From: Prevotella sp.
GTDB lineage: Bacteria; Bacteroidota; Bacteroidia; Bacteroidales; Bacteroidaceae
DNA length: 41,770 nucleotides
Assembly (NCBI GenBank): GCA_022769825.1
Contig: JALEJI010000043.1
Location: 1 to 41,770, forward strand
Direction of reading: 5' to 3'
Part shown: positions 229 through 41,770 of the stretch, piece after piece
Numbering within the stretch: the stretch's first letter is position 1
Layout: each line of letters opens with the position of its first letter
Notes under the pieces: model-generated
Databases searched by the model: none
What the model saw: the letters and a program-made list of their open reading frames with translations, nothing else
What the model was told of the DNA's origin: nothing
Translations under genes and position numbers: made by a program

Positions 229-435
229 TGGATAATTGATGTAAATCAATGGAATGGGTGATTTTTTAGACGGGATAGACTTTATAGACTATTATAGACA
301 GGATAGACTATTATAGACAGATGGACAAGATGGACGGAATGGGCACATGAGGCAGGACAAGCCGCAGAAGAAACGCGACACATGTTGGTAGAAATGTTAA
401 AAATGCAACAAAATGAAGATTTTTAAGGCAAAAGA
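229..435. repeat. Non-coding stretch with short ATAGAC repeats
   Basis: This lies between the leftward promoter and the trp promoter. Positions about 268-320 contain five or so copies of ATAGAC spaced by a few bases, some as TTATAGAC and GGATAGAC. No gene, RNA or terminator is convincing here. Confidence 0.5.
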
Positions 436-466
436 TTTGCTAATTGAAACAAAACATATAACTTTG
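436..466 (+). promoter_or_regulatory. Promoter of the trp operon leader
   Basis: TTTG (436-439), a 19-nt spacer and TAACTTTG (459-466) match the Bacteroidetes promoter consensus. Transcription would start near 473. That gives a leader of about 500 nt before trpD, containing the 19-bp repeats, the leader peptide and the attenuator terminator. Confidence 0.7.
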
Positions 467-560
467 CAACTGAAATAGTAAACAGACAAGAAGCCTGAAA
501 CACTATCATTATAAGGTAAAGCATTATAAGGCAAGGCGTCTGCAACTATAAAATAAATTA

Positions 561-673
561 GAACCATAAACAAGACACGAACAATAAACAAGAACAAGAA
601 CAATAAATAAGAACACGAACAATAAATAAGAACACGAACAGCAAAAAAGAACACGAACAATAAATAAAAAAGC
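561..673 (+). repeat. 19-bp tandem repeat in the trp leader (six units)
   Basis: Units begin at about 561, 579, 598, 617, 636 and 655 with the pattern GAACAATAAATAAGAACAC. The third and fourth are identical and the outer ones are diverged or one base short. The array is A-rich and nearly free of T-rich pairing partners, so it should be single-stranded in the transcript. It ends 6 bp before the trp leader peptide start codon. Confidence 0.8.
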
Positions 674-679
674 AAGAAT

Positions 680-739
680 ATGACAAATAATGTATCTACA
701 TATTGGTGGTGGCGTAACTCAAGATTGATAAAGTCGTGA
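680..739 (+). CDS. trpL: trp operon leader peptide (19 codons, three consecutive Trp)
   Basis: ATG at 680, TGA at 737-739. The peptide is MTNNVSTYWWWRNSRLIKS, with three adjacent TGG codons at 704-712. It sits between a good promoter (436-466) and an intrinsic terminator (786-821), upstream of trpD. A run of Trp codons in a short leader ORF before a terminator is the classical design for ribosome-mediated attenuation: stalling on scarce charged tRNA-Trp would change leader folding. Positions 692-700, just before the Trp codons, are perfectly complementary to 752-760. Positions 733-739, at the end of the ORF, are perfectly complementary to 804-810 in the terminator. The upstream A-rich sequence would serve as ribosome entry without a Shine-Dalgarno site. 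The gene symbol is assigned by analogy; the peptide is too short for family recognition. Confidence 0.8.
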   Translation: MTNNVSTYWWWRNSRLIKS

Positions 740-785
740 GGAGCGAAGCCGTGTAGATACTTCAATCATAAGATGAAGAAACAAG

Positions 786-821
786 AAAGAGGCCTGCCGT
801 GAATCACGACAAGCCTCTTTT
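786..821 (+). terminator. Attenuator terminator upstream of trpD
   Basis: The 5' arm at 786-802 pairs with the 3' arm at 804-820 through 15 pairs and two C/A mismatches, with an effective loop of about 5 nt, followed by a short T run (818-821). It lies 47 nt after the leader peptide stop and about 160 nt before trpD. The 3' arm (804-810) can instead pair with 733-739, which would block the terminator. Confidence 0.75.
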
Positions 822-842
822 ACTTTATAATAAACACAACAT

Positions 843-977
843 AGAACATTATAATAAACTGAACGGTGAACATCAGAAGAACATTATAAGAAACTGAATG
901 GTGAACATCATAAGAAACAGAATGGTGGACATCATAAGAACATTATAATAAACATAACGAAGAACATTAAAAAATAC
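843..977 (+). repeat. 35-bp direct repeats between the attenuator and trpD
   Basis: Two near-identical 35-bp units lie at 843-877 and 878-912 (core AACATTATAA, then AAACTGAA, then GGTGAACATCA). Shortened copies follow at 913-936, 937-960 and 961-977. The array fills the space between the terminator and the trpD start codon. It has no ORF and no obvious hairpin. Confidence 0.75.
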
Positions 978-981
978 GGAT

Positions 982-1986
982 ATGAACATCACAGGCATTT
1001 TCAACCGTCTCCTCGACCATGAGGAGCTGAAACGTGAGGAAACAAAAGACTTGCTCATCGCCATCACGCACGGAGAGCTCAACGACGCGGAGATTGCCGC
1101 GCTCCTTACCGCCATCAAGATGCGCGGCATCACGGTGGACGAACTTCTCGGCTTCCGCGACGGCATCTTAGAGACTGGCGTGCCAGTGCCCTTGGACTGC
1201 GATAGATACATTGACGTAGTGGGAACAGGCGGCGACCGCAAGAATACGTTTAACATATCCACCACCGCTTGCTTCGTGATAGCCGGAGCTGGATACAAGG
1301 TGGCAAAGCACGGCAACTACGCCGCCACGAGCGTGAGTGGGGCTTCAAACGTGATAAAGAACCACGGCGTGACGTTCACTGATGACATCGACAAGCTCAA
1401 CCGCTCGATAAACGAGTGCGGCATTGTTTATCTCCACGCCCAGCTCTTTGCCAAGGCAATGAAGTTTGTTGGCGCCATACGCAAGGCGTTGCCCTTCCCG
1501 ACTTTCTTCAATCTCCTCGGCCCCATCATCAACCCGTCGAAGCCCCAGTGCCAGCTCCTTGGCACCGCCACGCTCGACCAGATGCGCCTCTACCAGCAGG
1601 TGTACCAGAAGATAGGCATCGACTACGGCATCGTGAACAGCATTGACGGCTACGACGAGATTTCGCTCACGAGCGACTTCAAGGTCATCACCAACGACTA
1701 CGAGCGCATATTCAAGCCCTCCGACCTCGGGTTCAAGACGGCCAAGCCAGAGGAGATAGTAGGCGGAGCCACAGAGGAAGAAGCCAAGCAGATTTTCGAC
1801 AACGTGCTGGCCAACACCGCATTGCCCGCGCAGAAGAACATAGTGCTGGCCAACGCCGCGTTCGGCATCCAGGTGCTGGAGAAAGGCAAGAAGCCTATAA
1901 GCGAATGCATAGACATAGCACGCGAGAGCATAGACAGCGGCAAGGCATTGGCGACATTCAAGAAGTTTGTTGAGTTGAACAAGTAA
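982..1986 (+). CDS. trpD: Anthranilate phosphoribosyltransferase
   Basis: Transfers phosphoribose from PRPP to anthranilate, the second committed step of tryptophan synthesis, in the cytosol. The protein is 334 residues, normal for the family. It carries the PRPP/anthranilate-binding signature GTGGDRKNTFNIST near residue 81 and KHGNYAATS shortly after. A DD(E)-type Mg site region is expected later but was not aligned. ATG at 982 follows the leader repeats directly. It is the first structural gene of the operon; trpC begins 17 bp after its stop. Expression should depend on the upstream attenuator. Confidence 0.96.
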   Translation: MNITGIFNRLLDHEELKREETKDLLIAITHGELNDAEIAALLTAIKMRGITVDELLGFRDGILETGVPVPLDCDRYIDVVGTGGDRKNTFNISTTACFVIAGAGYKVAKHGNYAATSVSGASNVIKNHGVTFTDDIDKLNRSINECGIVYLHAQLFAKAMKFVGAIRKALPFPTFFNLLGPIINPSKPQCQLLGTATLDQMRLYQQVYQKIGIDYGIVNSIDGYDEISLTSDFKVITNDYERIFKPSDLGFKTAKPEEIVGGATEEEAKQIFDNVLANTALPAQKNIVLANAAFGIQVLEKGKKPISECIDIARESIDSGKALATFKKFVELNK

Positions 1987-2003
1987 TCCCCAAATTCTGA
2001 CCC

Positions 2004-2792
2004 ATGGACATATTAGAAGAGATAGTGGCCCACAAGCGGGTGGAGATTGACGAGCGCAAGCGGTTCGTCCCCCTCCAGCAATTCACTGGCGCCATACAAC
2101 AGATGATGGATGAAGGCAAGCCCGCCTCCATGAGCGAGGCCCTGACATCATCGGCCACAGGCATCATAGCCGAGTTTAAGCGCAAGAGCCCATCGAAGGG
2201 TTGGATCCATCGCGACGTGAAGCCGCAAGAGGTGACCCCACTCTACCAGAGCAACGAGGCGTCGGCACTGAGCATCCTCACCGACACGCAATATTTCGGC
2301 GGCTACGACGAGTATATCCAGCAAGCGCGGCAAGCCGGGGTTACGATACCCATACTCTACAAGAACTTCATCATCGACGAATACCAGCTGTTCCAGGCCC
2401 GTTTCTGCGGAGCCTCGGCGGTGTTGCTCATCGCCGCCTGCCTCACCAAGGACGAATGCAAGCACTTGCAGCACCTGGCCCACGAACTTGGCATGGAGAC
2501 CCTGCTGGAGATGCACAACTACCGCGATTTCGACTACGCCTCGCTGGAGCCCGACATGTATGGCATAAACAACCGCAATCTCGGCACGTTCACCACCGAC
2601 GTGAACAACAGCTTCCGCCTCGCCAGCCGACTGCCCCAAGGCGCTTGCCTCGTGAGCGAGAGCGGCATAAGCCATCCCGACACCGTGAAAGAGCTACGGG
2701 AAGTGGGATTCAGAGGATTCCTTATCGGAGAGAGATTCATGAGAGAGGCTGACCCTGGCGCGGCCCTCAAACAATTCATTGAAGAGGTATGA
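2004..2792 (+). CDS. trpC: Indole-3-glycerol-phosphate synthase
   Basis: Closes the ring of CdRP to indole-3-glycerol phosphate with loss of CO2. The protein is 262 residues, a single TIM barrel and not fused to TrpF. Recognisable motifs are the N-terminal ILEEIVAHKRVEI helix, IIAEFKRKSPSKG with the catalytic Lys, ILYKNFIIDEYQ, GINNRNL and the C-terminal phosphate-binding VSESGI and FLIGERFM. The last codon overlaps the trpF start as ATGA (2789-2792), implying coupled translation. Confidence 0.96.
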   Translation: MDILEEIVAHKRVEIDERKRFVPLQQFTGAIQQMMDEGKPASMSEALTSSATGIIAEFKRKSPSKGWIHRDVKPQEVTPLYQSNEASALSILTDTQYFGGYDEYIQQARQAGVTIPILYKNFIIDEYQLFQARFCGASAVLLIAACLTKDECKHLQHLAHELGMETLLEMHNYRDFDYASLEPDMYGINNRNLGTFTTDVNNSFRLASRLPQGACLVSESGISHPDTVKELREVGFRGFLIGERFMREADPGAALKQFIEEV

Positions 2793-3514
2793 TAATAAAA
2801 GTATGTGGGATGCGTGATGCCCAAAACATCCGCGACGTGGCCGAGCTCAACATTGACATGATGGGGTTCAACTTCTGGCCAAAGAGCAAACGCTACGTCA
2901 ACATGATAAGCTCACAGGCCGGCATCGTGCCCGACTACAGCCAGGAGCGGCTATGCGAAATAGCCAACAATAGCGGCTCGCCACGATACGCCTTCCCAAA
3001 GAGGGTAAAACGCGTGGGCGTGTTCGTCGACGAGATGCCGCAAACGATAGTGACTCGCGTGTACAACTATTCGCTCGACTACATCCAGCTCCACGGAGAC
3101 GAGACGCCAACGCTGATAGACAACCTGCGGAGCACGTTGGTGCCTGACATCGTGCCCGAGATAAAGTTCATAAAAGCCTTTGGCATATCCACCGCCGCCG
3201 ACTTCGCCGCGTGCGAGGCTTTCGAGGGAAAGGCCGACCTTCTGCTCTTCGACTACAAGACGACAGGGCGCGGAGGCAGCGGCAAGCACTTCGACTGGTC
3301 GTTGCTCGACGCCTACCACGGCTCTACGCCGTTCCTGCTCAGTGGCGGCATAGGCCCCGACGACGCTGAAGAGATTTCGCGAATAAGCCATCCGCTATTC
3401 GCCGGCGTCGACGTGAACAGCCGCTTCGAGACAGAGCCAGCCATGAAAGACGTGGAAAAGCTGAGAGGTTTCGTGGAGCGCATAAGACATCATAACACAA
3501 TGGGAAACCTGTAA
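2789..3514 (+). CDS. trpF: Phosphoribosylanthranilate isomerase
   Basis: Isomerises phosphoribosylanthranilate to CdRP. It begins IIKVCGMRD, with the catalytic Cys, and has MGFNFWPKSKRYV, VGVFVDE, IQLHGDE with the catalytic Asp region, and a C-terminal LSGGIGPDDAEEI phosphate site. At 241 residues it is longer than the usual 200-210. The extra length is largely an insertion between KRYV and VGVFVDE (about residues 35-70). The start overlaps trpC by 4 nt; trpA follows after 13 nt. Confidence 0.95.
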   Translation: MIIKVCGMRDAQNIRDVAELNIDMMGFNFWPKSKRYVNMISSQAGIVPDYSQERLCEIANNSGSPRYAFPKRVKRVGVFVDEMPQTIVTRVYNYSLDYIQLHGDETPTLIDNLRSTLVPDIVPEIKFIKAFGISTAADFAACEAFEGKADLLLFDYKTTGRGGSGKHFDWSLLDAYHGSTPFLLSGGIGPDDAEEISRISHPLFAGVDVNSRFETEPAMKDVEKLRGFVERIRHHNTMGNL

Positions 3515-3527
3515 AAGCAACATAGCT

Positions 3528-4304
3528 ATGAACAAAATCAATCAAGTATTTGCCAACCGTGGCGACAGGAAACTGCTCAGCCTGTATTTCTGTGCCGGCT
3601 GCCCCACCCTGGACGGCACGGCGGATGTGATCAAGGCCATGGAGCGCCACGGCATCGACTTCGTGGAAGTGGGCATGCCCTTCAGCGACCCGCTCGCCGA
3701 CGGCCCCGTGATACAGTCGGCAGGAGCCATAGCCCTGAAGAATGGCATGACTACCCGACTGCTTCTCTCGCAGCTCAAGGCCATCAAGGATGAAGTGTCG
3801 ATACCATTGATATTCATGGGGTATCTCAACCCGATACTGCATTATGGATACGAGAAGTTCTTCGCCGACCTCGCCGACAGCGGCGTGTCGGGCGTCATCA
3901 TCCCCGACCTTCCATTTGCCGACTACCAGACGATAGTGAAACCCATCGCCGACCGCTACGACATTCGCGTCATCATGATGATAACGCCGGAGACGAGCGA
4001 CGAGCGCATAAGGTTCATCGACGACAACACCGACGGCTTCATCTACATGGTGTCGTCGGCAAGCGTAACGGGAGCGCAAAAGGAGTTCGACGCCAAGAAG
4101 GTGGCTTATTTCAGCCACATCAACTCCATGAACCTCCGCATACCCCGCATGATAGGTTTCGGCATAAGCAACAAGCAGACGCTTGACAGCGCGCAACAAA
4201 ACGCCGCCGGTGCCATAATAGGCAGCAAGTTCGTGAACCTGCTGCGCGAGACCAACGACCCCGACAAGGCCCTCGACAAGCTCATGAAAGCACTGGGAGA
4301 GTGA
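3528..4304 (+). CDS. trpA: Tryptophan synthase alpha chain
   Basis: Cleaves indole-3-glycerol phosphate to indole and glyceraldehyde-3-phosphate, passing indole to TrpB in the alpha2beta2 complex. It is 258 residues. The family signature VEVGMPFSDPLADGPVIQ near residue 45 includes the catalytic Glu, and a conserved PDLPF follows with the catalytic Asp. The C-terminal GFGISNKQT and AIIGSKFV form the phosphate site. Here trpA precedes trpB, the reverse of the usual trpBA pair. Confidence 0.96.
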   Translation: MNKINQVFANRGDRKLLSLYFCAGCPTLDGTADVIKAMERHGIDFVEVGMPFSDPLADGPVIQSAGAIALKNGMTTRLLLSQLKAIKDEVSIPLIFMGYLNPILHYGYEKFFADLADSGVSGVIIPDLPFADYQTIVKPIADRYDIRVIMMITPETSDERIRFIDDNTDGFIYMVSSASVTGAQKEFDAKKVAYFSHINSMNLRIPRMIGFGISNKQTLDSAQQNAAGAIIGSKFVNLLRETNDPDKALDKLMKALGE

Positions 4305-4336
4305 ATAAGAGGAACAAATATAAAAAGAACAAGACT

Positions 4337-5533
4337 ATGGAACCAGACAAGAACGGCTTTTTCGGCCAATATGGCGGGGCGTACATCCCAGAGATATTAT
4401 ATAAGGTGGTGCACGACCTGCAAGACCAGTACAAGGAGATAATAGACTCCAAGGAGTTTCAAGACGAGTATGGGCTACTGCTGAAAGACTACGTGGGCCG
4501 ACCATCCCCACTCTACTATGCCAAGCGCATGAGCGAGAAATACGGTTGCAAGCTCTACCTGAAGCGTGAGGACCTGAACCACACGGGCGCCCACAAGATA
4601 AACAACACCATTGGCCAGATACTCATGGCCAAGAAGATGGGCAAGACGCGCGTCATCGCCGAGACCGGCGCCGGACAGCACGGCGTGGCCACGGCCACCG
4701 TTTGCGCGCTGTTCGACATGGAGTGCGAGATTTTCATGGGCAAGACCGACGTGGAGCGCCAACACACCAACGTGGAGCGCATGAAGATGCTCGGAGCCAA
4801 GGTTCACCCCGTGACCACGGGCAACATGACCCTGAGCGACGCCTGCACCGCCGCCATCAGGGACTGGTGTTGCCACCCCGACACCACGTTCTACATCGTG
4901 GGCTCCACGATGGGGCCTCACCCCTACCCCGACATCGTGGCGAGGCTGCAAAGCGTGATATCAAAAGAGCTGAAATGGCAACTCCAGGAGAAGATTGGCC
5001 GAGACTACCCCGACTATCTCGTGGCTTGCGTGGGAGGCGGAAGCAACGCCGCCGGCACCATTTACCACTACATCGAGGACTCTCGCGTGAAGATTGTGCT
5101 GGCCGAGGCCGGAGGCCACGGCGTTGACACCGACCACACCGCCGCCACCATACATTGCGGCACCAAGGGCATAGTGCACGGCTCGCGCACACTCGTCATG
5201 CAAGACGACGACGGCCAGATAAAAGAGGCGTTCACCATATCGGCCGGCCTCGACTACCCGGGCATAGGACCCATGCACGCGCATCTGGCCAAAACGGGAC
5301 GCGAGAAGGTAGTGGCCATAAACGACGACGAGGCCATACGCGCCGGATACGAGCTGACGCGCATGGAGGGAATAATACCCGCCATAGAGAGCGCGCACGC
5401 CGTGGCGGCACTGTCGAAGATGACTTTCAAGCCCGACGACGTGGTAGTGCTCACGGTGTCGGGACGTGGCGACAAGGACATCGAGACATATCTCAACAAC
5501 AAAGACATGGCAGGGGATTATGGCAAGTTTTAA
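4337..5533 (+). CDS. trpB: Tryptophan synthase beta chain
   Basis: PLP enzyme that condenses indole with serine to tryptophan. The chosen start is ATG at 4337 (MEPDKNGFFGQYGG), giving 398 residues, the standard size. A GTG 36 bp upstream would add a Lys/Asn-rich tail and overlap trpA, which is less likely. Motifs: LNHTGAHKINN with the PLP lysine, AETGAGQHG, GGGSNA phosphate loop, and the GRGDKD C-terminal motif. Its last 14 nt overlap the start of trpE. Confidence 0.96.
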   Translation: MEPDKNGFFGQYGGAYIPEILYKVVHDLQDQYKEIIDSKEFQDEYGLLLKDYVGRPSPLYYAKRMSEKYGCKLYLKREDLNHTGAHKINNTIGQILMAKKMGKTRVIAETGAGQHGVATATVCALFDMECEIFMGKTDVERQHTNVERMKMLGAKVHPVTTGNMTLSDACTAAIRDWCCHPDTTFYIVGSTMGPHPYPDIVARLQSVISKELKWQLQEKIGRDYPDYLVACVGGGSNAAGTIYHYIEDSRVKIVLAEAGGHGVDTDHTAATIHCGTKGIVHGSRTLVMQDDDGQIKEAFTISAGLDYPGIGPMHAHLAKTGREKVVAINDDEAIRAGYELTRMEGIIPAIESAHAVAALSKMTFKPDDVVVLTVSGRGDKDIETYLNNKDMAGDYGKF

Positions 5534-6929
5534 TTATCACACCACTACGAAAAGGCTGCTCGGCGACCTCTTCACGCCCGTCAGCCTCTACATGCGCCTG
5601 CGCGACCTTTACCCGCAGTCGATGCTCATGGAAAGCTCCGACTATCACGGAAGCGAGAACGCCAAGAGCTTCATCGGCATAGACCCCATGGCGAGCATAC
5701 AAGTGGCCCACGGGACACTGACGATGACCTTCCCCGACGGCAGCTCAGTAAAGAGGGACATACCCGTGGAGAACAGCGACAAGCCGAAGCTGGCCGTGGC
5801 AAAGGCCATGAACGACTTTTTGGGCAGTTTCCACGTCGAAGGCGAAGGCTGCCAATACTACGGCATATTCGGCTTCACGTCGGCCAACGCCGTGCGCTAC
5901 TTCGAGAACATACCGGTGAAGGACACCACCATGGAGCGCAACGACGCGCCCGACATTCTCTACCTCCTCTTCAAGGACATCATCGTGTTCGACCATTTCA
6001 ACAACATGATCGACTTCATTACCCTTGGCACGGCCGACGAGCTGCAAAACCTGCTGACCGCGGCCAACAAGCCCAACGTGAAGCCTTACGGGTTCCACGC
6101 CGTGGGCGGCGCCACGTCGACGCTGACCGACGAGGAGCACAAGGCCAACATAAGGCGCTGCGTGCGCCATTGCCTGCGAGGCGACGTGTTCCAGATAGTG
6201 ATAAGCCGAAGGTTCATACAGAAATATGAGGGCGACGACTTCAAGCTCTACCGCGTGTTGCGCTCCATCAACCCCAGCCCCTACCTGTTCTACTTCGACT
6301 TCGGCGGCTACCGCATCTTCGGCTCATCGCCCGAGACCCACAACCGCATAGTGGGCAACAAGGCGTTTATAGACCCCATTGCCGGCACCACGAAACGCAC
6401 GGGCAACACCGAGCAAGACCGCAAGAACGCCGAGTTTCTGCGCAACGACCCCAAGGAGAACGCCGAGCACGTGATGCTCGTGGACCTGGCACGCAACGAC
6501 CTCAGCCGCAACTGCCACAACGTGAAGGTGGACTTCTACAAGGACATGCAATATTACAGCCACGTCATCCACCTGGTGAGCCGTGTCAGCGGCGAGCTCA
6601 ACGATGGCGCCGACCACACGCTGGAGTTTATCGACACCTTCCCCGCCGGCACGCTGAGCGGCGCGCCAAAGGTGAGGGCGCTGCAGCTCATCAACGAGAT
6701 GGAGCCACACAACCGCGGTGCCTACGGAGGTTGCATAGGCTCGATAAGCCTCAACGGCGACCTAAACCAAGCTATCGTGATACGCACGTTCATCAGCCGC
6801 AACGGCGAGCTGTGGTTCCAGGCCGGGTCGGGCGTGACGGCAAAGAGCAACGACGACTATGAGCTGCAAGAAAGCAACAACAAGCTCGGAGCATTAGTGA
6901 AAGCCATAAAGGAAGCAGAAAGACTATGA
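5520..6929 (+). CDS. trpE: Anthranilate synthase component I
   Basis: Makes anthranilate from chorismate using ammonia from TrpG. I chose ATG 5520 (MASFNYHTTT), giving 469 residues. The longer frame would run far into trpB. The chorismate-binding domain shows FIDPIAGTTKRTG, the DLARNDLSR motif, and TFPAGTLSGAPKVRAL near the C-terminal third. Feedback inhibition by tryptophan is known for the family; the N-terminal region that binds it is present but was not checked residue by residue. Its stop overlaps trpG as ATGA. Confidence 0.96.
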   Translation: MASFNYHTTTKRLLGDLFTPVSLYMRLRDLYPQSMLMESSDYHGSENAKSFIGIDPMASIQVAHGTLTMTFPDGSSVKRDIPVENSDKPKLAVAKAMNDFLGSFHVEGEGCQYYGIFGFTSANAVRYFENIPVKDTTMERNDAPDILYLLFKDIIVFDHFNNMIDFITLGTADELQNLLTAANKPNVKPYGFHAVGGATSTLTDEEHKANIRRCVRHCLRGDVFQIVISRRFIQKYEGDDFKLYRVLRSINPSPYLFYFDFGGYRIFGSSPETHNRIVGNKAFIDPIAGTTKRTGNTEQDRKNAEFLRNDPKENAEHVMLVDLARNDLSRNCHNVKVDFYKDMQYYSHVIHLVSRVSGELNDGADHTLEFIDTFPAGTLSGAPKVRALQLINEMEPHNRGAYGGCIGSISLNGDLNQAIVIRTFISRNGELWFQAGSGVTAKSNDDYELQESNNKLGALVKAIKEAERL

Positions 6930-7489
6930 AAACAGTGATTATAGACAACTACGACTCCTTCACCTTCAACCTCGCGCACCTCTTAAAGGAATTGGGCGCC
7001 GAGGTCGACGTGGTGCGCAACGACCAGTTTGAGTTGCCCGCCTTGGAGCGATACGACAAGATAGTGCTCTCGCCCGGCCCCGGCATTCCGTCGGAGGCCG
7101 GACTCCTGCTCGACGTGATACGCGCTTACGCCGGACGCAAGCCCATGCTCGGCGTATGCCTTGGCCACCAGGCCATCGGCGAGGTGTTCGGCGCCAAGCT
7201 GGAGAACCTGACGGAGGTATACCACGGCGTGGCGACCGACTGCGAGCACTTCTCCAACGACCCCATCTTCAATGGCATGCCCAGGCATTTCGAGGTCGGG
7301 CGATACCACAGCTGGGTGGTCAGCAAGGATGGGCTCCCCGACTGCCTTGAAGTGACGGCGACCAGTCCCGACGGCAACATCATGGCATTGCGCCACAAGC
7401 GCTATCCGGTGCACGGCATACAGTTCCACCCAGAGAGCGTGCTCACGCCCCTCGGCAGGCAGATAGTGGGCAACTGGCTGAACGAATGA
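6926..7489 (+). CDS. trpG: Anthranilate synthase component II (glutamine amidotransferase)
   Basis: Releases ammonia from glutamine for TrpE. It is a 187-residue class I amidotransferase. The nucleophile lies in LGVCLGHQAIGE (about residue 79) and the catalytic His/Glu pair in QFHPESVLTP near the C-terminus. NYDSFTFNL at the N-terminus is typical. It could also serve para-aminobenzoate synthesis in genomes lacking pabA; that cannot be judged from this window. It overlaps trpE by 4 nt and ends 7 nt before the next gene. Confidence 0.95.
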   Translation: MKTVIIDNYDSFTFNLAHLLKELGAEVDVVRNDQFELPALERYDKIVLSPGPGIPSEAGLLLDVIRAYAGRKPMLGVCLGHQAIGEVFGAKLENLTEVYHGVATDCEHFSNDPIFNGMPRHFEVGRYHSWVVSKDGLPDCLEVTATSPDGNIMALRHKRYPVHGIQFHPESVLTPLGRQIVGNWLNE

Positions 7490-30637: not shown

Positions 30638-32230
30638 ATGACATATCATTACGATTTCCTCATCATCGGCGGTGGCGTAGCCGGTATGAGCTTTGCACTC
30701 AAAGTAGCCAATGCCCATAAGGGTTCTGTCGCCATCATCTGCAAGACCACTCTCGACGAGGCCAACACCGCGAAGGCGCAGGGCGGCATAGCCTCGGTCA
30801 CCAACCTCGCCGTGGACAACTTCGACAAGCACATCCACGACACCATGGTGGCTGGCGACTGGCTTTCCGACCCCAAGGCCGTTGAGCATGTGGTGCGCAA
30901 CGCCCCCGACGCCATAAAGGATCTCGTGAAGTGGGGTGTCAACTTCGACAAGAAAGATGACGGATCGTTTGACCTGCATCGCGAGGGCGGACACTCTGAG
31001 TTCCGCATCCTGCACCATCAAGACGACACGGGCTTCGAGATTCAACGTGGCTTGATGGCAGCCGTCAAAAGCAACCCCGACATAACGGTGCTCGAAAACC
31101 ACTTCGCCGTGGAGATAATCACCCAGCACCATCTCGGCCAGGAGGTGACACGCCGCACGCCCGACATCGAGTGCTATGGCGCTTATGTCATTAACCCAGA
31201 GACTCAGAAAGTGGACACGTATCTCTCTCGCGTCACCCTCATGGCAACAGGTGGCACGGGCGCGGTCTATGCCACGACGTCAAACCCGGAAATAGCCACG
31301 GGCGACGGCATAGCGATGGCTTATCGCGCCAAGGCCACGGTGAAAGACATGGAGTTCGTGCAGTTCCACCCCACCGTGCTCTACAACCCGGCGGAGACGC
31401 ACCCTGCCTTCCTCATCACGGAGGCCATGCGCGGATATGGAGCTATACTCAAGTTGCCCGACGGAACGGAGTTCATGCAGAAATATGACCCGCGCCTGTC
31501 GCTCGCGCCACGCGACATCGTGGCACGCGCCATAGACCACGAGATGAAGATCCACGGTCTCGACCACGTGTGCCTCGACGTGACGATGAAAGACCCGGAG
31601 CAAACGAAGAAGCATTTCCCTCATATCTACGAGAAATGCCTGTCCATCGGCATCGACATCACCAAGCAGATGATACCGGTATGTCCGTCGGCCCACTACA
31701 TGTGCGGCGGCATCAAGGTGGACCTCAACGCCGAGAGCTCAATACATCGCCTCTATGCCGTGGGCGAGTGCTCATGCACAGGCCTGCACGGCGGCAACCG
31801 ACTGGCTTCCAACTCGCTCATCGAGGCTGTGGTCTACGCCAAGAGCGCTGCCGAGCACGCCATCGAGAACATAGACAACTACCATTTCGAGGAGGACGTG
31901 CCAGAGTGGAACGACTTCGGAACGCTCACCAATGAGGAGAAGGTGCTCATCACGCAGGATGAGAAAGAGGTGGGACAGGTGATGTCTACCTACGTGGGCA
32001 TCGTGCGCTCCAACCTCCGCTTGAAGCGTGCGTGGACCCGCCTCGACATGCTCTACGAGGAGACTGAGGACCTCTTCCGCCGCGTCAAGCCAACACGCGA
32101 CATCTGTGAGCTCCGCAACATGATAAACGTGGGCTATCTCATCACGCGCCAGGCCATAGAGCGACACGAGAGCCGCGGACTGCACTACAACATAGACTAC
32201 CCACGCACCGACAAGCCTACGGAAAAATAA
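30638..32230 (+). CDS. nadB: L-aspartate oxidase
   Basis: FAD enzyme that oxidises L-aspartate to iminoaspartate, the first step of de novo NAD synthesis; it works with fumarate as acceptor in anaerobes. It is 530 residues. The FAD-binding IIGGGVAGMSFAL is at residue 8 onward, ANTAKAQGGIA is the flavin-contact motif, and HTMVAGDWL, FVQFHPTVLY and GEC(S)CTGLHGGNRLASNSLIE are conserved in succinate dehydrogenase/aspartate oxidase relatives. nadA follows after 17 nt, as expected of a nadBAC operon. Confidence 0.95.
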   Translation: MTYHYDFLIIGGGVAGMSFALKVANAHKGSVAIICKTTLDEANTAKAQGGIASVTNLAVDNFDKHIHDTMVAGDWLSDPKAVEHVVRNAPDAIKDLVKWGVNFDKKDDGSFDLHREGGHSEFRILHHQDDTGFEIQRGLMAAVKSNPDITVLENHFAVEIITQHHLGQEVTRRTPDIECYGAYVINPETQKVDTYLSRVTLMATGGTGAVYATTSNPEIATGDGIAMAYRAKATVKDMEFVQFHPTVLYNPAETHPAFLITEAMRGYGAILKLPDGTEFMQKYDPRLSLAPRDIVARAIDHEMKIHGLDHVCLDVTMKDPEQTKKHFPHIYEKCLSIGIDITKQMIPVCPSAHYMCGGIKVDLNAESSIHRLYAVGECSCTGLHGGNRLASNSLIEAVVYAKSAAEHAIENIDNYHFEEDVPEWNDFGTLTNEEKVLITQDEKEVGQVMSTYVGIVRSNLRLKRAWTRLDMLYEETEDLFRRVKPTRDICELRNMINVGYLITRQAIERHESRGLHYNIDYPRTDKPTEK

Positions 32231-32247
32231 ACACATGCCAAGCAACC

Positions 32248-33234
32248 ATGGAATCAATAGAATCTTTGAAAAATAAAATTAAAGAATTAGCCAATTCGCG
32301 CCACGCCCTCATCCTCGCCCATTACTACACACGTCCTGAGATACAAGAGGTTGCCGACTTCATTGGCGACTCACTTGCCTTGGCGCGCAAGGCCGCAGAT
32401 ACCGACGCTCCCGTGCTGGTGATGTGCGGCGTGCATTTCATGGCAGAGACATGCAAACTGCTCTCGCCCAACAAGATTGTGCTTGAGCCAGACCCATCAG
32501 CCGGCTGCTCGCTGGCCGACAGCTGCAAGGCCAACGACCTTGCACAATACAAGAAAGAGCATCCCGGATACAAGGTAATAAGCTATGTCAACACCACGGC
32601 GGCGGTGAAGGCCCTGTCCGACTGTTGCGTCACCTCTGGCAATGCCGTGAAGGTCATCAACAGTCTGCCCAAGGACGAGAAACTGATTTTCGGTCCCGAC
32701 TACAACCTCGGCAACTACATCAACTCCATCTCCGGTCGCCAGATGCTACTCTGGAACGGCGGTTGCCACGTGCACGAGAAGTTCTCCGTCAACGCCATAC
32801 TCGCCTTGAAGAAGCAATATCCCGACGCCATCGTCATGGCGCACCTTGAATGCAAGGCGCCCGTGCTCGCCTTGGCCGACGTGAAAGGCTCCACGGCGAG
32901 CATGCTCACCTACGCCAAGGCTCACCCAGAGCAGAAACAGTTTATCGTGGCTACCGAGGCCGGCATACTGTTCGAGCTGAGCAAGCAGTGCCCCGACCAA
33001 GAGTTCATACCCGTGCCTCCAGAGGTCACGGAGGGCGAGAACGGCATTGGCGCCACGAAAGCCGAGGGCGGCATACCCGCGTCGTGCGCTTGCAACGAAT
33101 GCGAGTTCATGAAGCTCAACACCTTGGAGAAGATCATCAAATGCCTGGAAACGCTCCAGCCGCAAGTGACAATCCCTGAGGACATAGCCTGCGAGGCGGT
33201 AAAGCCAATAGAGAAAATGCTGAGCCTCTCCTGA
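32248..33234 (+). CDS. nadA: Quinolinate synthase
   Basis: Condenses iminoaspartate with dihydroxyacetone phosphate to quinolinate using a 4Fe-4S cluster. It is 328 residues. LILAHYYTRPEIQEVADFIGDS at the N-terminus, MCGVHFMAETCKLL, the central WNGGCHVHE and the C-terminal CACNECEFMKLNTLEKI are the family's three conserved regions; the cluster cysteines lie in the latter segments. It is in line with nadB and nadC. Confidence 0.95.
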   Translation: MESIESLKNKIKELANSRHALILAHYYTRPEIQEVADFIGDSLALARKAADTDAPVLVMCGVHFMAETCKLLSPNKIVLEPDPSAGCSLADSCKANDLAQYKKEHPGYKVISYVNTTAAVKALSDCCVTSGNAVKVINSLPKDEKLIFGPDYNLGNYINSISGRQMLLWNGGCHVHEKFSVNAILALKKQYPDAIVMAHLECKAPVLALADVKGSTASMLTYAKAHPEQKQFIVATEAGILFELSKQCPDQEFIPVPPEVTEGENGIGATKAEGGIPASCACNECEFMKLNTLEKIIKCLETLQPQVTIPEDIACEAVKPIEKMLSLS

Positions 33235-33271
33235 TAAAATCACCTTAACCCGACATTAAAACATCATTCAC

Positions 33272-34180
33272 ATGAACTACAAGCAAACAGAAAAAGAACT
33301 TACCGACCGTCTTATCGACCTATCATTTGCCGAGGACATTGGCGACGGCGACCACACCACCCTATGCTGCATCCCCGCCGACGCCATGGGCGAGAGCGAA
33401 CTGATGATAAAGGAAGAGGGCATCTTCGCCGGCGAGCGCGCTGCCAAGGAAGTGTTCAGCCGCTTCGACCCTGACCTGAAAGTGACCATGCACATGCACG
33501 ACGGCGACCACGTGCGCCCAGGCGACATCGTGCTCTCGGTAAGCGGACGCGAGCAGAGCCTCCTCACCACCGAGCGCCTCATGCTCAACATCTGCCAGCG
33601 CATGAGCGGCATAGCCACCATGGCCCACCGCTACCAGCAGGCTCTCATCGACGCGGGCACTAAGACGCGCGTCCTCGACACGCGCAAGACCACGCCGGGC
33701 ATGCGCATGCTGGAGAAAGAGGCCGTGCGCATCGGAGGCGGAATGAACCACCGCATAGGTCTCTTCGACATGATCCTGCTCAAGGACAATCACATCGACT
33801 TCTGCGGTGGCGTGCACAACGCCATAACCCGCGCGCGCCAATATTGCAAGGACAAGGGCCTCGACTTGAAGATAGAATGCGAGGTGCGCGACTTCGCAGA
33901 GCTTAACGAAGCCCTGAAGGACCTGCCCGACCGCATCATGTTCGACAATTTCACGCCTGCCGACACGGTAAAGGCCGTGGAACTCGTACACGCCGCCAAG
34001 AACGCCGACGGAACGCCGGCCCACATAGAGACGGAATCGTCGGGTGGCATCACCTTCGACACCATGATTCCGTATGCCAAGGCCGGAGTGGACTTCATCT
34101 CCTTTGGCGCGCTGACCCACAGCGTCAAGGCCCTCGACATGAGCCTCAAGGCAAAGGGGTCGTCGAAGCTCTCCATGTAA
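33272..34180 (+). CDS. nadC: Nicotinate-nucleotide pyrophosphorylase (carboxylating)
   Basis: Converts quinolinate and PRPP to nicotinate mononucleotide and CO2, completing the de novo branch. It is 302 residues, a type II PRT. Motifs: LNICQRMSGIATMAHRY, DTRKTTPGMRMLEKEAVRIGGG, LFDMILLKDNHI, and ESSGGI..DTMIPYAKAGVDFIS near the C-terminus. All substrate-binding Arg/Lys/His residues expected from these motifs are present. The next gene begins 39 nt after its stop. Confidence 0.95.
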   Translation: MNYKQTEKELTDRLIDLSFAEDIGDGDHTTLCCIPADAMGESELMIKEEGIFAGERAAKEVFSRFDPDLKVTMHMHDGDHVRPGDIVLSVSGREQSLLTTERLMLNICQRMSGIATMAHRYQQALIDAGTKTRVLDTRKTTPGMRMLEKEAVRIGGGMNHRIGLFDMILLKDNHIDFCGGVHNAITRARQYCKDKGLDLKIECEVRDFAELNEALKDLPDRIMFDNFTPADTVKAVELVHAAKNADGTPAHIETESSGGITFDTMIPYAKAGVDFISFGALTHSVKALDMSLKAKGSSKLSM

Positions 34181-40696: not shown

Positions 40697-40782
40697 CAAG
40701 GTTGATGCGCAGCAAATCAAAAAAGGGGATTCATGGCGACTGCATCCGTCAGACGCTTTCATCCTGACAATGATTCTGAATC

Positions 40783-40879
40783 GAGTAGGAGGAAAACGAA
40801 GTAGTTTTCTTCCTACTTTCGTTTTCCGACCTCTCACACCACCGTACATGCGGTTCCGCATACGGCGGTTCCTATTTTG
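40783..40879 (-). mobile_element. Group II intron 3' end (domains V and VI)
   Basis: On the minus strand about 40840-40873 is a typical domain V: CCGCCGTATGCGGAACCGCA pairs back with TGTACGGTGG, leaving a GAAC tetraloop. It is followed by GTGAGAGG and a last helix (40785-40816). All domain V pairs are intact. The 3' boundary should lie near 40783-40786. It is downstream of the reverse transcriptase on the same strand, as in an ordinary group II intron. Confidence 0.8.
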
Positions 40880-40968: not shown

Positions 40969-41770
40969 TTAGCTATTAGCTATACGCCAATAGCCCTTGC
41001 GAGTATTACCCCATTCGTATGCTTGGTATTTATTGATACCACATCTAATGAGGTTTGCCACTTTTGTCTTGACTTTCTTCCAGGCTTTCCATATACACAT
41101 GCGTATTCGATGTCTTAACCATTCGTCTGTTTCATGCAAGAGACGCTTCATATTGGCAAGGTGATAATAACTGACCCACCCTCTTATGTATTCTTTCAGC
41201 TTTTGCTTCCTCTTGGCATATCCCCATCCGTTGCTGCGACTTGTCAGTTCTTTCAACCTTGACTTCATTTTGGCTTTGGACTTTGGATGTACCGTGAGTT
41301 GGCATTTGCCTTTCATCACATAGAAGGAGTAGCCGAGGTATTTAACTCCGCGCACATACGACACTACGGTCTTTTCCTTGTTGACTTTGAGATATAGAGC
41401 ATTCTCTATAAATCGGGTTACACTCTCCTTCACTCGCATTGCTACCCTTTTGGACTTGCAGAATATCATCGAGTCGTCGGCATAGCGCACAAAGGGGAGT
41501 CCCCTGCGTTCGAGTTCTTTATCCAACTCGTTGAGCATGATGTTACTCATCAACGGACTTAACGGTCCGCCTTGGGGAGTTCCTTCCTCGCTCGCTTCAA
41601 ACAAACCTTTGTTCATTACACCACTTCGAAGATATTTGTGTATAAGACTGACAACTCTGCCGTCTTTTATCGTACGGCTGAGGATTTCTATGAGCTTGCT
41701 ATGGCTCACGGTGTCGAAGAAGCGTTCAAGGTCAAGGTCCACTACATATATGTAGCCCTCGTTGATTATC
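40969..41770 (-). CDS. Group II intron reverse transcriptase/maturase (partial, runs off the window)
   Basis: The C-terminal about 267 residues of an intron-encoded protein; the 5' part is beyond position 41770. Visible parts: VDLDLERFFDTVSH (RT motif 3), TPQGGPLSPLMSNIMLNELD (motif 4), RYADDSMIF with the catalytic Asp pair (motif 5), LGYSFY (motif 7), then the maturase X domain (GWGYAKRKQKLKEYIRGWVSYY) and a short basic tail. An HNH endonuclease domain is not seen after GYWRIANS. No frameshift or stop interrupts the visible part, so the intron may be functional. Domain V-VI lies 90 nt downstream. Confidence 0.9.
   Translation of the reverse strand, partial: IINEGYIYVVDLDLERFFDTVSHSKLIEILSRTIKDGRVVSLIHKYLRSGVMNKGLFEASEEGTPQGGPLSPLMSNIMLNELDKELERRGLPFVRYADDSMIFCKSKRVAMRVKESVTRFIENALYLKVNKEKTVVSYVRGVKYLGYSFYVMKGKCQLTVHPKSKAKMKSRLKELTSRSNGWGYAKRKQKLKEYIRGWVSYYHLANMKRLLHETDEWLRHRIRMCIWKAWKKVKTKVANLIRCGINKYQAYEWGNTRKGYWRIANS

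What the first reader, a model, noticed from the sequence alone, without database searches (positions are those of the whole stretch)
436..982. Complete transcription attenuator for the trp operon in a Bacteroidales-type genome
Seen: a consensus promoter, a 19-codon ORF with three consecutive Trp codons (704-712), an intrinsic terminator (786-821) and trpD. Two alternative pairings support a switch. Positions 692-700 pair perfectly with 752-760 and enclose the Trp codons. Positions 733-739 pair perfectly with 804-810, inside the terminator's 3' arm. A ribosome stalled at Trp codons would leave 733-739 free to block the terminator; one reaching the stop codon at 737-739 would cover it and allow termination. 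Established: this logic controls trp in enteric bacteria. Inference: it acts the same way here, with an antiterminator that differs in using the end of the leader ORF.
Basis: partly seen in the sequence, partly recalled or inferred. Interest (0 to 1): 0.8.

Follow-up and report, generated by a model that had tools for sequence, protein, structure and literature searches.

The report
Tryptophan-sensing switch before trp genes
In front of this bacterium's tryptophan-making genes lies a short leader that codes for three tryptophans in a row and can form two competing RNA folds that are conserved in relatives; it likely works as a switch in which a ribosome that stalls for lack of tryptophan would let the genes be copied, an ordinary kind of control whose predicted antiterminator is worked out here for a known RNA family.

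Summary

It is the outer half of a longer predicted antiterminator that also holds the terminator's 5' arm. In folding with assumed ribosome footprints the outer helix exceeds P 0.5 in 87 of 91 leaders with a ribosome at the Trp codons, 17 of 91 without one and 1 of 91 at the stop codon, while the terminator is only partly transcribed. At full length the terminator wins, so any effect must be kinetic.

Added here: the antiterminator, leaders beyond Rfam's reach, and leaders before trpB2-like genes and lone trpB or trpF. No experiment was available. New member of a known kind.

The parts
436..466 (+). Bacteroidota-type promoter TTTG-N19-TAACTTTG (-33 and -7 elements)
   Evidence: Pattern; same kind of pattern upstream of 36 of 38 same-genus leaders, 0.4 expected from shuffles; consensus quoted in PMC7366714
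575..670 (+). 19-nt direct repeats that lengthen the 5' leader of this genome
   Evidence: family D2, 4 overlapping 39-nt copies spaced 19; -7 element to ATG is 213 nt here and 22-93 nt in the other 37 same-genus leaders
680..739 (+). leader peptide ORF MTNNVSTYWWWRNSRLIKS*
   Evidence: similar leaders in same-genus kin
704..712 (+). three consecutive Trp codons (control codons)
   Evidence: 2 to 4 Trp residues in each of the 126 leader peptides extracted (100 with 3, 22 with 2, 4 with 4; at least two were required by the extraction)
692..701 (+). arm 1 of the leader (1:2) hairpin, pairs with 751-760
   Evidence: Free fold; the RF01692 model has a hairpin here
751..760 (+). arm 2 of the leader (1:2) hairpin
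733..740 (+). octamer GTCGTGAG over the stop codon: outer antiterminator strand; 733-739 pairs with 804-810
   Evidence: mostly paired inside the 1:2 hairpin in the free fold
743..750 (+). inner antiterminator strand: 743-745 pairs with 798-800, 748-750 with 791-793
   Evidence: statistical support weaker than for the outer helix
786..820 (+). intrinsic-terminator hairpin (786-801 / 805-820) followed by TACTTTAT
   Evidence: terminator helix covaries over 91 leaders, 91.9% of 1337 cells paired, 13 of 15 pairs with a change on both sides
804..810 (+). antiterminator target in the terminator loop and upper 3' arm
982..1986 (+). trpD, first gene of the operon
   Evidence: NCBIfam TIGR01245, 289.2 bits, cut-off 199.05
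2004..7489 (+). trpC, trpF, trpA, trpB, trpE, trpG in this order
   Evidence: NCBIfam hits: TrpC, TrpA, TrpB, TrpG above a curated cut-off; TrpF and TrpE below the cut-offs of their best models, but those are their best hits

Best explanation
Window 436-982 holds a promoter pattern, a leader ORF with three Trp codons, a terminator hairpin and a conserved, covarying complementarity between the end of the ORF and the terminator, and it likely works as a ribosome-mediated transcription attenuator of the trp operon. Shown: the parts, their homologues and the covariation. Inferred: a ribosome waiting for charged tRNA-Trp at 704-712 would cover arm 1 (692-701) and so break the 1:2 hairpin, which frees 733-750. 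This strand would then pair with 791-793, 798-800 and 804-810 as the terminator is being transcribed, delaying the hairpin until the polymerase has passed. With tryptophan plentiful the ribosome would run on to the stop codon and cover 733-750; with no ribosome the 1:2 hairpin would hide the octamer. Both would give termination near 821. The element is a divergent member of the Bacteroid-trp family.
For: RF01692 aligns over its whole model at 657-798 (1-131 of 131, E 3.5e-4).

Leader association: a match of model R1 at E<=2e-8 is present in 102 of 107 TrpD-positive genomes and in 8 of 43 others (lists, counted; R1 was built from 91 leaders of which 38 are of this genus).

Outer helix: 93.4% of 695 cells paired, 4 of 8 pairs with changes on both sides in 39 cells, covariation score 0.264 (shuffles 0.209, 0 of 500 as high), slid controls 12.4-60.6%. 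The sixth octamer base faces an unpaired terminator-loop base in 80 of 91 leaders; in these 80 the pair is GC 38, GU 25, AU 15 and unpaired 2.

Cases against the terminator's own pairing: L039 and L043 have T in the 3' arm with G in the 5' arm (G-U) but A in the octamer (A-U). L034, L035, L038 and L040 have octamer C-G where the terminator has T-G.

Native versus swapped terminators: 0 of 5000 permutations as good, overall and within clades.

Ribosome folding: outer helix P>0.5 in 87 of 91 stalled, 17 of 91 free, 1 of 91 at stop, with RNA exposed to the end of its target. Scanning the ribosome gives 82-88 of 91 from the first Trp codon to +15 nt. At 8 nt of exposed 3' arm the leader holds the 5' arm more than the 3' arm does in 51 of 91 and, in 35 further leaders, 24 of 35 when stalled; 0 of 91 and 2 of 35 free; 2 of 91 and 2 of 35 at stop.
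Against: At full length the outer helix exceeds P 0.5 in only 1 of 91 stalled leaders, so the model needs kinetics that were not simulated. In the window it holds until base 816 and is lost at 818.

The footprint (about 31 nt) is assumed, and the stop state masks the octamer by construction in most leaders. At 5 nt of exposed 3' arm the 5' arm is held more by the leader in 90 of 91 stalled, but also in 39 of 91 free, 33 of 91 at stop, and in 55 of 91 stalled leaders with shuffled sequence.

In one search the column shuffles still pair in 90.2% of cells, since the helix is strongly conserved; 19 of 500 shuffles reach 4 doubly changed pairs, and the number of pair types (10) is not above shuffles (487 of 500 as high). 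Related rows inflate shuffle controls.

The inner helix alone beats shuffles in 9 of 91 leaders; permutations as good as native are 34 of 5000 overall and 1 of 5000 within clades. In 14 further same-genus leaders loop plus 3' arm pairing is significant in 5, and in 21 more distant ones in 8, against 12 for 5' arm plus loop, so the exact form is not universal. Octamer position 1 fails in 14 rows where the terminator pair holds.

The U-tract is imperfect and the 5' leader is unusually long here. No transcript data were available.
Confidence: 0.86

Rival explanations
1. The octamer-terminator pairing is incidental and the working antiterminator is the classical one, in which the leader holds only the terminator's 5' arm.
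For: In 21 leaders from more distant loci 5' arm plus loop pairing is significant in 12, the 5' arm alone in 5 and loop plus 3' arm in 8. An inner 5'-arm helix exists in the window, and inner helices fit their own terminator better than swapped ones within clades (1 of 5000 as good). At octamer positions 1, 3 and 5 more rows keep a Watson-Crick pair with the 5' arm only than with the octamer only (14 against 2, 2 against 0, 15 against 12).
Against: In the 85 distinct leaders of the main set loop plus 3' arm pairing is significant in 64, 5' arm plus loop in 7 and 5' arm in 2. At positions 2 and 4 more rows pair with the octamer only (18 against 1, 24 against 0); those at position 4 are leaders whose terminator stem is shorter there, and those at position 2 mostly share one ancestral mismatch.
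Confidence: 0.12
2. The nascent peptide, not the Trp codons, senses tryptophan: WWWRxSR acts as an arrest peptide that stalls the ribosome, as TnaC does with free tryptophan (TnaC recalled, and seen in the listing).
For: The sequence after the Trp codons is well conserved within the genus (WWWRxSRxxKS in most leaders).
Against: Leaders L081, L090 and L098 read the conserved bases in another frame and run to a stop at W+60 with other C-termini, while the octamer stays. Outside the genus the residues after Trp differ (WWWNNLRQTS in L051, YWWRPLQLNKS in L087).
Confidence: 0.04
3. The octamer binds the finished terminator loop as a pseudoknot that stabilises termination rather than preventing it.
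For: Part of the complementarity lies in the terminator loop, and full-length RNA prefers the terminator. Pseudoknots were not modelled.
Against: The pairing also uses bases of the upper 3' arm that the terminator needs (on average 2.2 to 4.8 per leader by group). The octamer is mostly paired elsewhere in the no-ribosome fold of the window.
Confidence: 0.05
4. The hairpin is an unregulated terminator or a leftover, and the Trp codons are coincidental.
For: No expression data; imperfect U-tract; the pattern scan alone finds no excess of terminator-like sites.
Against: The ORF with Trp codons, a terminator and the pairing recur before trpD or trpB, whichever comes first, in 36 of 36 same-genus loci read, and before trp genes in other families.
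Confidence: 0.03

Closest known systems
Bacteroid-trp RNA, Rfam RF01692 (listed in Weinberg et al. 2010, PMC2864571; table row seen)
   Same: Cis-regulatory leader in Bacteroidota, Trp-codon ORF, a hairpin around the Trp codons, whole-model alignment; likened to the E. coli trp leader in PMC6414381 (passages)
   Different: Scores 45.5 bits, below the gathering score of 49. The Rfam model ends inside the terminator's 5' arm (position 131 aligns to base 798), so it contains no antiterminator or complete terminator. The leader is lengthened by 19-nt repeats.
Escherichia coli trpL attenuator (recalled; Rfam family Trp_leader, recalled as RF00513)
   Same: Trp-codon leader peptide, pause-type hairpin, terminator, antiterminator formed when the ribosome stalls (also stated in PMC8229198, passages)
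   Different: No match to that family among the eight hits listed at E<=10. Here the predicted antiterminator strand overlaps the stop codon and continues past the 5' arm through the loop into the 3' arm; in E. coli (recalled) it takes the 5' arm only.
T-box riboswitches for tryptophan genes (recalled)
   Same: Respond to tRNA-Trp charging and switch a terminator
   Different: Sense tRNA directly without translation; no T-box match among the eight hits. A 2008 survey found none in 7 Bacteroidetes/Chlorobi genomes (PMC2494555, passages).

Membership tests
Bacteroid-trp (RF01692) | Covariance-model match at the gathering score | tested here: inconclusive
   45.5 against 49 bits, E 3.5e-4, whole model aligned. 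Similar same-genus leaders reach 56.4 (L006), 63.4 and 59.1 bits (G399, G024); of 15 further trpD-first same-genus loci given to the scan 1 reached it. Miss read as divergence, not as lack of homology.
Bacteroid-trp (RF01692) | Lies upstream of trp genes in Bacteroidota | tested here: met
   trpD at 982 and six further trp genes; similar leaders in the same genus and family.
Bacteroid-trp (RF01692) | Short ORF with at least two Trp codons inside a hairpin | tested here: met
   Three Trp codons at 704-712 inside the 692-760 hairpin
Bacteroid-trp (RF01692) | Tryptophan-dependent transcription termination in cells | not testable with these tools
   No expression data
Enterobacterial Trp_leader family | Match to its Rfam model | tested here: not met
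   Not among the 8 matches at E<=10
Ribosome-mediated attenuator (general kind) | Cognate codons in a leader ORF, terminator and mutually exclusive antiterminator | tested here: met
   By sequence and predicted folds:
Ribosome-mediated attenuator (general kind) | Ribosome position decides between the two folds | tested here: inconclusive
   Supported by constrained folding only
T-box | Match to a T-box model | tested here: not met
   Not among the 8 matches at E<=10

The most novel reading that the evidence does not exclude
Bacteroid-trp leaders of Bacteroidaceae and Flavobacteriaceae switch with an antiterminator whose conserved core, an octamer normally laid over the leader's stop codon, seizes the terminator's loop and upper 3' arm while a second, freely drifting strand seizes its 5' arm. 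This gives a late, purely kinetic decision point unlike the 5'-arm-only textbook switch. The whole leader behaves as a portable cassette that stays at the head of the operon when gene order is permuted and has been placed before trpB2-like genes and salvage trpB or trpF.
Probability: 0.55. Interest if true: 0.55.

Novelty: new member of a known kind. Interest (0 to 1): 0.4.

Why it matters
It turns a catalogued RNA family, for which I found no described antiterminator, into a switch with named, mutable base pairs, testable in laboratory Bacteroides or Flavobacterium. If it works as predicted, a ribosome can follow RNA polymerase closely enough to control it in a phylum that mostly starts translation without Shine-Dalgarno sites (recalled). 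It also shows that the family is under-annotated: 1 of 15 further trpD-first same-genus loci reached the Rfam gathering score, while a model that includes the terminator finds leaders at E<=2e-8 in 110 of 150 genomes of the genus.

Tried and rejected

The alignment gave only a middling signal for the 1:2 hairpin arms (61.6% of 816 cells paired, slid versions up to 55.0%), probably because the arms are not well aligned across clades; I rely on Rfam's model and single-sequence folds for that hairpin.

I first thought that the antiterminator used only the loop and 3' arm. One search, which let the leader pair with the whole terminator, and (at least six leader-terminator pairs in 124 of 126 exposed-RNA folds, on average 5.8 to 8.6 of them in the 5' arm by group) showed otherwise, so that view was dropped.

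Trp leaders before trpB2-like genes were found in 4 of 119 genomes with that gene (G047, G070, G116, G135; positions compared by eye, loci read); among 30 trpB2 loci read, 2 had a leader and 2 more had short W-containing ORFs that look spurious. The window's own trpB2-like gene (C75) has no R1 match.

Seven of 42 further loci gave no leader plus terminator by script (L150 at a contig end, L161, L167, L173-L176) and were dropped from later counts. In one search, 14 loci where trpD is internal were replaced by their upstream stretches, and L076 (the window again) was left out. One search dropped 6 near-duplicate leaders. R1 matches at E between 1e-5 and 1e-3 include reverse-strand hits on the hairpin and were not counted as leaders.

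Literature: eight searches (listings) and passages of six papers showed no description of an antiterminator for this family. The supplements of PMC2864571 could not be read (no look-ups allowed), the review PMC2387123 is not held, and most subscription journals are missing, so this is no proof of absence.

Full report
What is there. The window reads, in order: a promoter pattern TTTG-N19-TAACTTTG at 436-466, a leader ORF at 680-739 coding MTNNVSTYWWWRNSRLIKS, a hairpin at 786-820 followed by TACTTTAT, and trpD at 982, then trpC, trpF, trpA, trpB, trpE and trpG.

What it is. At Rfam's gathering threshold the only match in the window was a group II intron far away. With the threshold lowered, RF01692 Bacteroid-trp matched 657-798 with 45.5 bits (gathering 49), E 3.5e-4, over the full model. 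Weinberg et al. 2010 (PMC2864571) list Bacteroid-trp in their table; I saw that row only. PMC6414381 (passages) notes that this element upstream of the Flavobacterium psychrophilum trp operon resembles the E. coli arrangement. So the attenuator kind, and the family, were known.

Relatives. In the 30 best of these the upstream DNA was read at once: 16 have the leader directly before trpD. In the other 14, trpD is internal and the leader precedes trpB. Six more loci also carry it. Thus 36 of 36 read loci, chosen by closeness of TrpD, have the leader at the head of the operon. Adding 26 loci from an RF01692 search of 247 genomes of the phylum and the 29 best new loci of 52 matches in 201 genomes of the family gave 91 leaders. 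The script found an in-frame ORF and a terminator in each of these.

The antiterminator, outer helix. On the 91-row alignment A2 the octamer (window 733-740) and the terminator loop plus upper 3' arm pair in 93.4% of 695 cells, with 39 cells changed on both sides in 4 of 8 pairs; slides of 1-3 columns give 12.4-60.6%. Column shuffles, which keep the strong conservation, give 90.2% and a covariation score of 0.209 against 0.264 (0 of 500 as high on both measures), but they reach the number of doubly changed pairs in 19 of 500 and the number of pair types in 487 of 500. For comparison the terminator gives 91.9% of 1337 cells. The sixth octamer base faces a base that lies in the terminator loop in 80 of 91 leaders; there the pair is GC 38, GU 25, AU 15, unpaired 2. 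Where octamer and 5' arm disagree on a Watson-Crick pair with the 3' arm, the counts (octamer only against 5' arm only) are 2:14, 18:1, 0:2, 24:0 and 12:15 for positions 1 to 5. Many of these rows share one ancestral change, and at position 4 the stem is simply shorter in one group, so they are not independent events.

Duplex energies average -10.5 kcal/mol for octamer region and target against -3.7 for other windows of the same leaders. Shuffles reach p<=0.05 in 68 of 91, and swapping terminators among leaders never does as well in 5000 permutations, overall or within clades.

Inner helix. Folding of the window from 723 on, as if the RNA before it lay under a stalled ribosome, gives 733-739:804-810, 743-745:798-800 and 748-750:791-793 at -21.2 kcal/mol, unchanged until base 816 is exposed; the terminator takes over at 818. 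Without a ribosome the 1:2 hairpin 692-760 includes most of the octamer. The inner helix drifts in sequence (GCC:GGC, AGTC:GACT, CCTTC:GAAGG and others). Its support is modest: 9 of 91 beat shuffles, and 34 of 5000 (overall) or 1 of 5000 (within clades) permutations match native.

Ribosome position. With a footprint of about 31 nt masked, and RNA exposed to the end of the octamer's target, the outer helix exceeds P 0.5 in 87 of 91 leaders stalled at Trp codons, 17 of 91 without ribosome and 1 of 91 at the stop codon (the last is largely by construction). Moving the ribosome codon by codon gives 82-88 of 91 from the first Trp codon to 15 nt beyond, 17-42 of 91 at offsets -30 to -6 upstream (69 at -3), 46 at +18 and 3 or fewer further on. 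In 35 further leaders not used to define the pairing the contrast is similar at 8 nt of exposed 3' arm (5' arm held by the leader in 24 stalled, 2 free, 2 at stop of 35; main set 51, 0 and 2 of 91). At 5 nt it is less clean: main set 90 stalled, 39 free, 33 at stop and 55 stalled with shuffled sequence of 91; further leaders 34, 16, 17 and 22 of 35. At full length the terminator wins nearly always, so the switch would have to be kinetic.

Wider spread. A model built from A2 (R1) matches 114 of 150 genus genomes at E<=1e-3 and 110 at E<=2e-8. Of the 107 TrpD-positive genomes 102 have such a strong match, of the 43 others 8 (G043, G092, G093, G114 and G139 have TrpD without a match). In 296 phylum genomes 86 match at E<=1e-3, many weakly and not all real. 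Loci read from other families (L152-L156) show WWW leaders and terminators before what reads by eye as trpE, trpG and trpD. Of these five genomes, G156, G198 and G213 are listed without an RF01692 match, G311 is not among its 27 matches, and G594 was not yet drawn then. In 21 more distant leaders pairing with 5' arm plus loop is significant in 12 and with loop plus 3' arm in 8; in the 85 distinct leaders of the main set the numbers are 7 and 64, and in 14 further same-genus leaders 0 and 5. L171 shows a long loop and 3'-arm helix with partly different letters (-18.6 kcal/mol, p 0.002).

Other genes under the leader. In four genus genomes a leader precedes a TrpB-like gene of the trpB2 type (L142, L145, L147, L148; the first 70 residues of one match NF009057 with 64 bits; positions). 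In others it precedes trpB without further trp genes in the stretch read (L139, L140) or trpF (L137, L138), judged by eye; some of these genomes are incomplete.

Verdict. The finding is real and the reading sound, but the kind is known. The added value is the covarying antiterminator, the ribosome-position test and the spread beyond Rfam's reach. All function is inferred.

Noticed in passing
window 40780-40870 and 40969-41769, minus strand: Group II intron domain (RF00029, 46.9 bits) and a reverse-transcriptase-like ORF (by eye) at the window's right edge; the ORF runs off the end.
   Followed up: no
window 575-670 and 822-980: 19-nt direct repeats between promoter and leader ORF, and repeats spaced 24 and 35 nt between terminator and trpD; they make this 5' region longer than in kin.
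   Followed up: partly
window 982-7489: trp gene order D-C-F-A-B-E-G; in 19 of 36 same-genus loci read trpB comes first instead, with the leader before it.
   Followed up: partly
L142, L145, L147, L148: Trp attenuator-like leaders before a stand-alone trpB2-like gene in 4 of 119 genomes that carry that gene.
   Followed up: partly
L137, L138, L139, L140: Leader kept before trpF or trpB in genomes where the TrpD search found nothing, perhaps a salvage or decaying pathway under tryptophan control; one of these genomes is only 77% complete.
   Followed up: partly
L081, L090, L098: Leaders whose reading frame differs after the Trp codons and ends far downstream, while the octamer is unchanged in sequence.
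   Followed up: partly
window 268-320: Short repeated TAGAC-type motif upstream of the trp promoter (by eye).
   Followed up: no
window 30638-34180: Three adjacent ORFs that read by eye as nadB, nadA and nadC.
   Followed up: no
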